A stretch of DNA of 64,000 bases from Victivallis sp. Marseille-Q1083 (GTDB taxonomy: Bacteria > Verrucomicrobiota > Lentisphaeria > Victivallales > Victivallaceae), in the NCBI RefSeq assembly GCF_903645315.1, contig NZ_CAHJXL010000001.1, forward strand, positions 558,001 to 622,000. Reading direction: 5' to 3'. The notes under the pieces are model-generated. The model was not told the DNA's origin, did no database searches, and saw only the letters and a program-made list of their open reading frames with translations. Each line of letters begins with the position of its first letter. Position 1 is the first letter of the stretch. A program made the translations under genes and the position numbers. Below are positions 7,346 through 9,565 of this stretch, piece by piece.

Positions 7346-7693
7346 TCATGGCTTGACGTAAGAAAATCCGCTGGCCTGCAGCTTGACCAGTTCGACGATG
7401 CCGGTCGGCACGACTTCGCAGCCGCCGATCAAATCGTGCTCGGACAAATTGGCCTTTTTCATCGCGCGGCGGCAAAGTTTGACCACCACATTCGGCCGGG
7501 ATACCGCCTTGACCGCTTCGGCCAGGTCGGTATTGTCGCGGCGGAAGAACTTCACCGCCGGCCCGTTGACCAGCATCGCCACCTGCACGTTCTCATTGGC
7601 GATCACCGCCCGGTAATTTTTGATATAGTTCAATCCGGTCTGCAATTTATCCAGATCATCTTCATTGATATGTATCACTAAATTATAAGTCAT
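7346..7693 (-). CDS. DsrE-family protein
   Basis: A 115-residue DsrE/DsrF-like alpha/beta protein (NLVIHINEDDLDKLQTGL..., VAMLVNGPAVKFF, VPTGIVELVKLQASGFSYVKP). Family members take part in sulfur relay or bind small effectors as homo-oligomers. A cysteine in VVKLCRRAM is at the position often used for persulfide transfer, but this has not been aligned. The ATG at 7693 is chosen because a near-perfect ribosome binding site (AGGAGG) lies just upstream; longer versions reach into the intergenic region. It is monocistronic and lies downstream of the candidate RNA at 7812-8396 on the same strand. Confidence 0.75.
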   Translation of the reverse strand: MTYNLVIHINEDDLDKLQTGLNYIKNYRAVIANENVQVAMLVNGPAVKFFRRDNTDLAEAVKAVSRPNVVVKLCRRAMKKANLSEHDLIGGCEVVPTGIVELVKLQASGFSYVKP

Positions 7694-7811: not shown

Positions 7812-7850
7812 AAAAAAATAATCGACGGTCAGCTTTCGCTGCCGTCGATT
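7812..7850 (-). terminator. rho-independent terminator of the candidate RNA
   Basis: Read on the minus strand, AATCGACGG and CCGTCGATT (7842-7850 and 7820-7828) form a 9-bp stem. Four more pairs (CAGC/GCTG) close a TTTC loop on the plus strand, and seven U residues follow (7812-7818). This is a textbook intrinsic terminator pointing leftwards. No protein gene ends just upstream of it on that strand, which supports a non-coding transcript. Confidence 0.8.
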
Positions 7851-8396
7851 CTTCCCGCCGGCCTGCCCCTTTCGGCGACCGGCATTCCGGGACGCGTCCG
7901 CTCCGGTTCTCCTCGCTCTCCTCTTCACCGGCCAACGTCTCCCGGTATCCTTGCCCGTCCGCCGGCTCCTCTTCCGGCAAGCGGGCAATTTCCGCAGGAA
8001 AAAACGTCGTTCTCCTCCATCAACGCTTTCCCCATCGCCGGAATGCTCCGCACCGGCTCCTCTTCCGGCAGCATCGCATTCCAAACACTCGTCCGATTCC
8101 GACGCCCTGCGGCCTCCTCTTCGCGGCATCGAACGATTCATCCGGCCGGGAATCGACTGCTCCTCCATTACGCATTCCTCTTCGAGTCGCTTCCCTGCTG
8201 GACTTCACCTTATCAATGGAGCGGCTTTCGTGCCAACTTTTTATAAAGCAATTCATCCGCTTACCCGGCAAGCAGATACCGGAAATTCCTCCGACGCAGA
8301 CCGGAGGTCGGACTTTTCAACTTTATTTGAAAAGGAAATTGCCGGCTTTCCGGCAAACGATTGACCATAAAATGATTAAGAAATTTTAAACAAAAG
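7812..8396 (-). ncRNA. candidate GGA-rich structured RNA (CsrB/RsmY-like)
   Basis: About 585 bases on the minus strand, bounded by a promoter-like pair (8402-8430) and a strong terminator (7812-7850). I count about 31 GGA triplets on this strand, roughly three times what nearby coding DNA shows. The heptamer AAGAGGA occurs five times (plus positions 7919, 7967, 8058, 8115, 8176). Two copies sit as AAGAGGAG loops closed by GCCGG/CCGGC-type stems (7961-7978, 8052-8069); a third is in a larger loop closed by CCGGT/ACCGG (7903-7931). Further small hairpins occur at 8341-8354 and around 8287-8310. Many short open frames exist on both strands but none has a ribosome site, family resemblance or consistent composition. 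The layout recalls CsrB/RsmY RNAs that titrate CsrA through GGA loops. No csrA lies in the window, so the partner is unknown. Confidence 0.45.
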
Positions 8397-8401
8397 TTGA
8401 T

Positions 8402-8430
8402 ATTTTAAGTTTTATTGATCACATTAACAA
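8402..8430 (-). promoter_or_regulatory. putative promoter of the GGA-rich RNA
   Basis: On the minus strand TTGTTA (8425-8430) and TAAAAT (8402-8407) are 17 bases apart, within a very AT-rich stretch that could act as an UP element. The match is moderate, not consensus. The predicted start is near 8396. Confidence 0.45.
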
Positions 8431-8506: not shown

Positions 8507-8542
8507 AAAAAAAATCCCCTCCGACGCAGTGCGCCGGAAGGG
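8507..8542 (-). terminator. terminator of the NifU-like/GGGtGRT operon
   Basis: On the minus strand a stem of about 12 pairs formed by 8516-8542 is followed by eight T residues (8507-8514). It lies 22 bases past the GGGtGRT stop codon, separating that operon from the candidate RNA to its left. Confidence 0.85.
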
Positions 8543-8563: not shown

Positions 8564-9565
8564 TTATTGCTGCATGGCCTGGGACACCGCCACCGCGACG
8601 GCCACCGAAGCGCCGACCATCGGATTGTTGCCCATCCCGATCAGGCCCATCATTTCCACGTGGGCCGGAACCGAAGAAGAACCGGCGAATTGCGCATCGG
8701 AGTGCATGCGGCCCATCGTATCGGTCATGCCGTAGGAAGCCGGACCGGCCGCCATGTTGTCCGGATGCAGCGTCCGGCCGGTGCCGCCGCCGGAAGCGAC
8801 GGAGAAGAATTTCTTGCCTTTTTCCCAGCACTCTTTCTTATAGGTCGCCATGACCGGATGCTGGAAACGGGTCGGATTGGTCGAGTTGCCGGTGATGGCG
8901 ACGTCGACATCTTCCTGGTGCATGATCTTGACGCCCTCGCGGACATCGTCGGCGCCGTAGCAGCGCACTTTGGCGCGTTCGCCGCTGGAGTACGGCGTTT
9001 CGGCGACGATATTCAATTTACCGGTCGCATAATCGAACTGCGTCTGGACGTAAGTGAAACCGTTGATGCGGGAGATGATCATCGCCGCGTCTTTGCCCAG
9101 CCCGTTCAGAATGACTTTCAACGGCGTCTTGCGCGCCTTGTTGGCGCTGCGGGCCAGACCGATGGCGCCTTCGGCGGCGGCAAACGATTCGTGGCCGGCA
9201 CAGAAAGCAAAGCATTGCGTCTCTTCGCGCAGCAGCATCGCCGCCAGGTTGCCGTGGCCCAGACCGACTTTACGGTCGTCGGCTACCGAACCGGGAATAC
9301 AGAAAGCCTGCAGGCCTTCGCCGAGGGTTTCGGCGACCTCGCTGGCGGCTTTCTGGCCTTTTTTGATCGCGACCGCCGCGCCGAGCGTATAGGCCCAGCA
9401 GGCGTTTTCAAAACAGATCGGCTGAACGCCCTTGACGATGGCGGCGACATCGACGCCTTTGTCCTTGCAGAGCCGGTCGGCGGCTTCGAGCGATTCGATG
9501 CCGTATTCTTTGAGCAGCGCGTTGATTTGCGCAATGCGTCTTTCATATCCTTCGAAAAGTGCCAT
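8564..9565 (-). CDS. GGGtGRT-family protein
   Basis: A 333-residue protein carrying the motif that names its family (SVASGGGTGRTLHPDN). Other conserved-looking segments are FCAGHESFAAAEGA, DVAITGNSTNPTRFQHPVM and the glycine-rich end LIGMGNNPMVGASVAVAVA. Several cysteines (ICFENAC, TQCFAFCAGHE, VRCYGA) would fit metal or cluster binding. Family members are typically found beside an iron-sulfur scaffold-like protein, as here: the NifU-like gene ends 34 bases upstream, so the two form an operon. The biochemical role is not established. A purine-rich AGGAG lies 11 bases before the ATG at 9565. Confidence 0.8.
   Translation of the reverse strand: MALFEGYERRIAQINALLKEYGIESLEAADRLCKDKGVDVAAIVKGVQPICFENACWAYTLGAAVAIKKGQKAASEVAETLGEGLQAFCIPGSVADDRKVGLGHGNLAAMLLREETQCFAFCAGHESFAAAEGAIGLARSANKARKTPLKVILNGLGKDAAMIISRINGFTYVQTQFDYATGKLNIVAETPYSSGERAKVRCYGADDVREGVKIMHQEDVDVAITGNSTNPTRFQHPVMATYKKECWEKGKKFFSVASGGGTGRTLHPDNMAAGPASYGMTDTMGRMHSDAQFAGSSSVPAHVEMMGLIGMGNNPMVGASVAVAVAVSQAMQQ

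What the first reader, a model, noticed from the sequence alone, without database searches (positions are those of the whole stretch)
7812..8430. A ~585-base minus-strand RNA packed with GGA hairpin loops
Seen: a strong intrinsic terminator (7812-7850), a promoter-like pair (8402-8430), about 31 GGA triplets, five exact copies of AAGAGGA spaced 48-91 bases apart, and stem-loops presenting AAGAGGAG in the loop (7961-7978, 8052-8069, 7903-7931). Neighbouring genes end at their own signals (8507-8542), so the block is a separate unit. Known: CsrB/RsmY-type RNAs use arrays of GGA loops to sequester CsrA/RsmA, and the loops resemble Shine-Dalgarno sequences. Inference: this is a protein- or ribosome-titrating RNA in a phylum where I know of no such RNA. 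No csrA is in the window, so the ligand may be new.
Basis: partly seen in the sequence, partly recalled or inferred. Interest (0 to 1): 0.82.

Follow-up and report, generated by a model that had tools for sequence, protein, structure and literature searches.

The report
Multi-copy GAGGAG hairpin-array RNAs
A bacterial genome in which the usual RNA-regulating proteins CsrA and Hfq were not found carries several long RNA-like loci that hold out many copies of one short tag, GAGGAG, perhaps to capture another RNA-binding protein.

Summary
The observation largely holds. Window 8398-7812 (minus) has a promoter-like pair, a strong terminator, 31 GGA, five AAGAGGA and seven GAGGAG. Four of seven GAGGAG sit in predicted hairpin loops (60 shuffles: mean 0.07, maximum 1); with GAGGAG fixed and flanks shuffled, the sites are still more open than chance. 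No Rfam family or Pfam domain fits.

The locus is not alone. Locus B shares an exact 17-base word of the promoter region, found only twice in the genome, and has three AAGAGGAG. Locus C is a striking array of six GAGGAG hairpins (fold z -8.7) before a GntR-type regulator gene. D is weaker. One of 77 other family genomes shows a similar array. No orthologues were found.

Small RRM proteins are present (three here; 72 of 78 genomes), and a Bacteroides RRM protein is reported to prefer GUAGGAUA. Best reading: a CsrB-like titrating or scaffold RNA for an RRM protein. Transcription and binding are untested, and locus B does not present its motifs in the predicted fold.

The parts
8392..8408 (-). 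17-base word TTAAAATATCAACTTTT (holds the -10-like TAAAAT); exact second copy in front of locus B; lies in a 38-base block 89% alike
   Evidence: (2 exact copies in the genome, next best 2 mismatches)
8402..8430 (-). promoter-like pair TTGTTA-17-TAAAAT
   Evidence: 9 of 12
7812..8398 (-). predicted RNA A, about 585 nt
   Evidence: no Rfam match (3, 12), no Pfam in seven ORFs (87)
8160..8165 (-). GAGGAG site 1 (in AUGGAGGAG), mean unpaired probability 0.76
8114..8119 (-). GAGGAG site 2 (in GAAGAGGAG), mean unpaired probability 0.71
8052..8069 (-). hairpin GCCGG-AAGAGGAG-CCGGU, loop 8064-8057
   Evidence: unpaired 1.0
7997..8033 (-). hairpin of 13 pairs, loop AUGGAGGAGAA at 8020-8010
   Evidence: unpaired 0.99
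7961..7978 (-). hairpin GCCGG-AAGAGGAG-CCGGC, loop 7973-7966; an outer stem continues
   Evidence: unpaired 1.0; best hit of hairpin model R1, which was built partly from it
7909..7923 (-). GAGGAG sites 6 and 7, mostly paired in the fold
   Evidence: 0.16, 0.30
7812..7850 (-). intrinsic terminator, 13 pairs with one bulge, then AUUUUUUU
8564..9565 (-). GGGtGRT protein gene upstream, terminator-like site 8542-8516 behind it
7346..7693 (-). DsrE-like gene downstream of the terminator

Best explanation
Locus A and its relatives B, C and D make structured non-coding RNAs or leaders that hold many GAGGAG motifs open. They act as multi-site ligands for a GGA-recognising RNA-binding protein, most likely one of the three small RRM_1 proteins of this genome. 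When transcribed they would take that protein away from mRNA start regions that carry similar SD-like sequence, as CsrB-type RNAs do for CsrA, or gather it into a particle. Shown by computation: repeated loci, promoter and terminator signals, openness of GAGGAG beyond the shuffles in A, C, D and the G033 array, no CsrA or Hfq match here, RRM proteins present. Inferred: transcription, protein binding, titration, the RRM as ligand.
For: A: GAGGAG in predicted loops 4 of 7 against a mean of 0.07 and a maximum of 1 in 60 shuffles; C: 5 of 6 against 0.03, maximum 1. With the hexamers fixed and the other letters shuffled, mean openness is A 0.70 against 0.49 (maximum 0.66, n=20), C 0.92 against 0.51 (maximum 0.66, n=25), D 0.86 against 0.53 (maximum 0.65, n=25), G033 array 0.79 against 0.64 (maximum 0.72, n=12). 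Strong local GAGGAG loops: A 4 of 7, C 5 of 6, other sites in the fetched loci of this genome 15 of 147 (that background is not a random sample and holds D). C: fold z -8.66, six hairpins with unlike stems, an 18-base closing stem. All six places of AAGAGGAGN{25,55}AAGAGGAG in this genome fall in A, B and C; the reversed control has none. A and B share an exact 17-mer. CsrA 0 of 78 in the family; Hfq no match here; RRM_1 in 72 of 78, three here. A reported preference of Bacteroides RbpB for GUAGGAUA (passage of PMC12119571, citing Adams 2021, which is not held).
Against: B: 0 of 3 GAGGAG in loops, openness 0.30 against 0.34 in shuffles; no sigma-70-type pair was listed at its shared word, and its terminator-like site is one where shuffles give 1.8. 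D: 1 of 8 in hairpin loops, as in shuffles. G033: 3 of 19 in loops, as in shuffles. No orthologue by blastn for A in 60 relatives (best E 0.001) or for C in 77 (7 short matches, best E 0.001), so there is no orthologue covariation. Arrays seen in 2 of 78 family genomes (list cut), although RRM proteins are in 72. RbpB is reported to bind mainly single-stranded regions with low micromolar affinity and to work with FopS sRNAs of a different design (passages). No RNA-seq and no binding data.
Confidence: 0.4

Rival explanations
1. Ribosome decoy: the open GAGGAG motifs pair with the anti-SD end of 16S rRNA and hold or delay 30S subunits, or make the C leader a ribosome stand-by site.
For: Computed duplexes of the loops with a recalled anti-SD tail are -7.4 to -9.3 kcal/mol, against -11.6 for AAGGAGGU and -4.3 for a control octamer. 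The genome does use SD sequences: GGAG stands 5-16 bases before 13.6% of 44 first ATGs and 3.3% of 271 internal ATGs. Array C lies directly before a GntR gene.
Against: The loops are not the best anti-SD complement. A closed eight-base loop strains such pairing (inference). The genome's own 16S tail was not read.
Confidence: 0.2
2. Divergent CsrA: a CsrA-like protein too diverged for the Pfam model is the ligand, and the RNAs are ordinary CsrB-type sponges.
For: CsrB-like architecture: long RNA, many GGA, terminator. CsrA occurs in other families of the class (16 of 197 genomes).
Against: 0 of 78 family genomes reach the cut-off; of two sub-threshold matches here, the better (E 0.24) is a short stretch in a 583-residue frame. 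ANGGA, the core of the CsrA site (recalled), is 4 of 31 GGA in A and 1 of 13 in C.
Confidence: 0.1
3. RNA-RNA action: the GAGGAG loops are seeds that pair with CUCCUC stretches in mRNAs or C-rich sRNAs (a sponge for anti-SD sRNAs).
For: A fixed loop word on unlike stems suits kissing contacts.
Against: No Hfq match in this genome; no partner RNA was searched for.
Confidence: 0.12
4. No function in common: a GC-rich genome rich in palindromes gives separate GGA-rich loci, and C is the only true structured leader.
For: Fold z of A in 300-base pieces lies within the range of other pieces of the window; B fails both tests; no orthologues; 10 of 12 single-hairpin rows printed lie under an open frame of 290 codons or more.
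Against: The exact word shared by A and B; all six AAGAGGAG pairs of the genome lie in A, B and C; the openness controls for A, C, D and G033.
Confidence: 0.18

Closest known systems
CsrB/CsrC, RsmY/RsmZ (sponges of CsrA/RsmA)
   Same: Stand-alone RNA with promoter and terminator signals, many GGA, several in hairpin loops, more than one such locus per genome
   Different: CsrA not found in the genome or over the cut-off in the family; loops are mostly NNGAGGAG, not ANGGAN; no Rfam match; one array stands before a regulator gene
RbpB and FopS/GibS sRNAs of Bacteroides (RRM-1 protein with a paralogous sRNA family)
   Same: RRM-1 proteins where Hfq and CsrA are missing; related RNAs in several copies; the reported RbpB motif GUAGGAUA holds AGGA (passages)
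   Different: FopS are about 65-70 nt with a single-stranded 5' stretch and a terminator (passages); A is predicted at about 585 nt with repeated structured sites
Rli31 and SpoVG of Listeria
   Same: An sRNA whose apical loop binds an RNA-binding protein, likened by its authors to Csr (passages)
   Different: One C-rich loop; SpoVG was not searched for here
Acido-Lenti-1 RNA motif (RF01687)
   Same: A candidate non-coding RNA listed for Acidobacteria and Lentisphaerae (table seen in a passage of PMC2864571)
   Different: No Rfam match in the window at gathering score

Membership tests
CsrB/RsmZ-type sponge RNA | Host encodes CsrA/RsmA | tested here: not met
   PF02599: none over the cut-off in this genome or in 78 family genomes; 3 of 14 control genomes rang over the cut-off
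CsrB/RsmZ-type sponge RNA | Several GGA in hairpin loops | tested here: met
   A: 6 of 31 GGA and 4 of 7 GAGGAG in loops against shuffle means of 1.83 and 0.07
CsrB/RsmZ-type sponge RNA | ANGGAN loop consensus (recalled) | tested here: not met
   ANGGA is 4 of 31 GGA in A, 1 of 17 in B, 1 of 13 in C; one A loop, AUGGAGGAGAA, does hold ANGGA
CsrB/RsmZ-type sponge RNA | Match to a described Rfam family | tested here: not met
   No match at gathering score in the window; nine hits below it at a relaxed threshold, none of a CsrB-type family
CsrB/RsmZ-type sponge RNA | Binds and titrates its protein | not testable with these tools
   Needs EMSA or CLIP
RRM-1 (RbpB-like) regulon RNA | Genome encodes small RRM_1 proteins | tested here: met
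   Three here, 72 of 78 genomes in the family; PDB 7jly, named as RbpPg1 in PMC12119571, matches one at E 2.7e-26
RRM-1 (RbpB-like) regulon RNA | RNA carries the protein's preferred motif in open sites | tested here: inconclusive
   AGGA fully unpaired: 4 of 10 in A, 1 of 4 in B, 5 of 7 in C; the specificity of these RRM proteins is unknown
FopS sRNA family | Short (65-70 nt) with a single-stranded 5' stretch | tested here: not met
   Predicted 587 nt, highly structured; no Rfam match

The most novel reading that the evidence does not exclude
A Csr-like post-transcriptional circuit built from different parts: in a bacterial family where CsrA is not found, RRM proteins with arginine- and glycine-rich tails are controlled by related RNAs, stand-alone and leader-type, that display arrays of GAGGAG.
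Probability: 0.27. Interest if true: 0.85.

Novelty: new variant of a known kind. Interest (0 to 1): 0.6.

Why it matters
How bacteria without Hfq and CsrA do RNA-level control is open. Non-coding loci with repeated open GGA sites, in a genome with RRM proteins, give a directly testable RNA-protein pair, and would be an independent origin of the Csr trick of titrating a translational regulator with an RNA decoy. In the rows listed by nine literature searches I saw no description of such an RNA in this group; several lists were cut, and the library holds only open-licence papers.

Tried and rejected
CsrA as ligand: searched twice, none over the cut-off. A coding origin: seven ORFs of the region, no Pfam hit at E 0.1; the open frames that run through C (340 codons, minus strand) and through the G033 array were not tested, but the repeat periods of the latter include 43 and 79, which are no multiples of three. 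A known RNA: Rfam twice, none at gathering score. A plasmid-borne relative: 13 short matches, none covering more than 6% of the query. Synteny of the GGGtGRT gene: 80 loci kept of at least 581; the DsrE neighbour was found in none of the 80 at E 0.001 (flanks of up to 3 kb), no cluster of the motif was seen in them, and the sequence behind the gene was read in two, L033 and L048.

GAGGAGN{28,58}GAGGAG in this genome gave 47 places, of which A has 6, C 5, D 5 and B 1. For this and for the triple-GAGGAG pattern (68 of 148 genomes) the tool's control is empty of meaning, because the hexamer reads the same backwards; many places look coding. AAGAGGAGN{25,55}AAGAGGAG matched 49 of 197 genomes, and the reversed control matches in many of them too; I followed 18 places and only G033:C5 gave an array. 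A hairpin model R1 in 78 genomes matched 75 at E 10; hits cluster only in G000 and G033 among the rows listed (the list was cut). I read 28 of the 30 loci kept; many look coding by eye, for example one conserved protein end in several g16 genomes. One search tested 25 loci and printed 12 rows: ten lie under open frames of 290 to 663 codons, two (one place) under 107. Three loci (L292, L297, L305) look like 5' leaders by eye and were not followed. R1 was built from ten hairpins chosen because they fold, four of them from the G033 array, so its pair counts (covariation 0.616 against 0.263 in shuffles) lean towards the structure.

SD survey: a first version with poor start choice was replaced by first-ATG against internal-ATG counts. 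Both array genomes have three RRM matches, and 8 of 78 genomes have three or more; two cases, and large genomes tend to have more, so I draw nothing from it.

Full report
What is there. Window 8398-7812, minus strand, lies between a GGGtGRT protein gene with a terminator-like site behind it (8542-8516) and a DsrE-like gene. It has a promoter-like pair at 8430-8402 and, at 7850-7812, a 13-pair stem with one bulge followed by AUUUUUUU. The counts in the finding are right: 31 GGA, five AAGAGGA, and there are seven GAGGAG. No Rfam family matches at gathering score and seven ORFs of the region have no Pfam domain.

Is it more than chance? The mean number of GGA in 587-base stretches of the window is 11.4 (sd 4.6). 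Four of seven GAGGAG are in hairpin loops of the minimum-energy fold; 60 dinucleotide shuffles give a mean of 0.07 and a maximum of 1. With GAGGAG kept in place and the other letters shuffled, openness is 0.70 against 0.49, with no shuffle of 20 as high. Fold energy alone is less telling: z is -5.06 (minus) and -4.72 (plus) at full length, and 300-base pieces of this locus (-3.98, -1.65, -2.07) lie within the range of 76 other pieces of the window.

It is one of several. A blastn of the locus in its own genome found a second copy of its promoter region (38 bases, 89%), with an exact 17-mer present only twice in 4.8 Mb. Behind it (locus B, G000:C1:2436199-2435605, minus) lie three AAGAGGAG and a terminator-like stem with a T run (one such site found, 1.8 expected from shuffles). 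Its z is -4.72 over 655 nt with 20 shuffles and -3.8 over 595 nt. B does not present its motifs in the predicted fold (0 of 3 in loops, openness 0.30 against 0.34), which counts against a simple reading.

A search for the loop word led to locus C (G000:C1:674015-674367, plus): promoter-like TTGACT-17-TATACT (read by eye), six GAGGAG on hairpins with unlike stems, an 18-base closing stem (94% complementary) and a short T run, ending just before a GntR/FCD regulator gene. Its z is -8.66, 5 of 6 motifs are in loops, and openness is 0.92 against 0.51. Locus D (G000:C1:2536199-2535869, minus) has eight GAGGAG, open 0.86 against 0.53 but only 1 in a hairpin loop, and a terminator-like end; its upstream part overlaps the end of a 123-codon open frame. 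All six places of AAGAGGAGN{25,55}AAGAGGAG in the genome lie in A, B and C; the reversed control has none.

Elsewhere. In 78 family genomes the hairpin model R1 gave clustered hits only in this genome and in G033 (the printed list was cut at about E 0.19). The G033 array has 19 GAGGAG in 521 bases. It lies between an Rrf2 regulator gene and a gene that I read by eye as a hybrid-cluster protein, and holds tandem repeats, so part of its regularity is duplication. Its openness is 0.79 against 0.64, but only 3 of 19 are in hairpin loops, no more than in shuffles, and open frames run through it. No orthologue of A was found by blastn in 60 relatives (best E 0.001), nor of C in 77 (7 with short matches, best E 0.001). 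So the support is within-genome repetition, not conservation.

The ligand. CsrA (PF02599) has no match at E 0.001 in this genome (99.7% complete), and is over the cut-off in 0 of 78 family genomes against 16 of 197 in the class. Hfq has no match here; it was not sought in relatives. RRM_1 matches are in 72 of 78 family genomes. This one has three proteins of 97 to 114 residues; two have glycine- and arginine-rich tails, the third a short tail. One matches 7jly at E 2.7e-26, the structure that PMC12119571 names as its Porphyromonas RRM protein (passages). That paper's discussion reports from Adams 2021 that Bacteroides RbpB prefers GUAGGAUA; I did not see Adams 2021 itself. In the RbpB paper PMC11697453 (passages) the protein binds a family of paralogous sRNAs. 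This makes an RRM protein the most economical ligand, but the link is inference from a shared AGGA and from the missing CsrA and Hfq; other RNA-binding proteins were not searched for.

How it would work. When A, B or C is transcribed, each RNA offers several GAGGAG sites. A protein that binds such sites near start codons would be drawn off, and its mRNA targets relieved; in C and the G033 array the sites stand before genes and could also act in cis. SD-like words are used as start signals in this genome, though weakly (GGAG before 13.6% of 44 first ATGs, 3.3% of 271 internal ones), so a GGA-binding protein could compete with ribosomes. All of this paragraph but the counts is inference.

Verdict. 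A non-random, multi-copy set of GAGGAG-displaying loci, strongest in C, good in A, weaker in D, and failing the structure test in B. In design it works like a CsrB-type RNA, but I do not file it in that family, because CsrA was not found in its host and its loops differ.

Noticed in passing
L114 1238-1585 (G000:C1:674015-674362, plus): Array of six GAGGAG hairpins in front of a GntR/FCD regulator gene, fold z -8.66; a stronger case than the finding itself.
   Followed up: yes
L247 2150-1650 minus (G033:C5): GAGGAG array with tandem duplications between an Rrf2 regulator gene and a gene read by eye as a hybrid-cluster protein.
   Followed up: partly
L211 1700-1370 minus (G000:C1:2536199-2535869): GGA-rich stretch with eight open GAGGAG and a terminator-like end, beside a short open frame that looks GntR-like by eye.
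   Followed up: partly
L343 2028-2153 and L344 5-95 (G032 contig ends): Head-to-tail TGAGGAG heptamer repeats at contig ends in a relative with six RRM matches; nature unknown.
   Followed up: no
L292, L297, L305: Single hairpins with AAGAGGAG or UUGAGGAG loops shortly before possible start codons in other family genomes, seen by eye.
   Followed up: no
L337, L338, L339: Three small RRM_1 proteins in a genome without a CsrA or Hfq match.
   Followed up: partly
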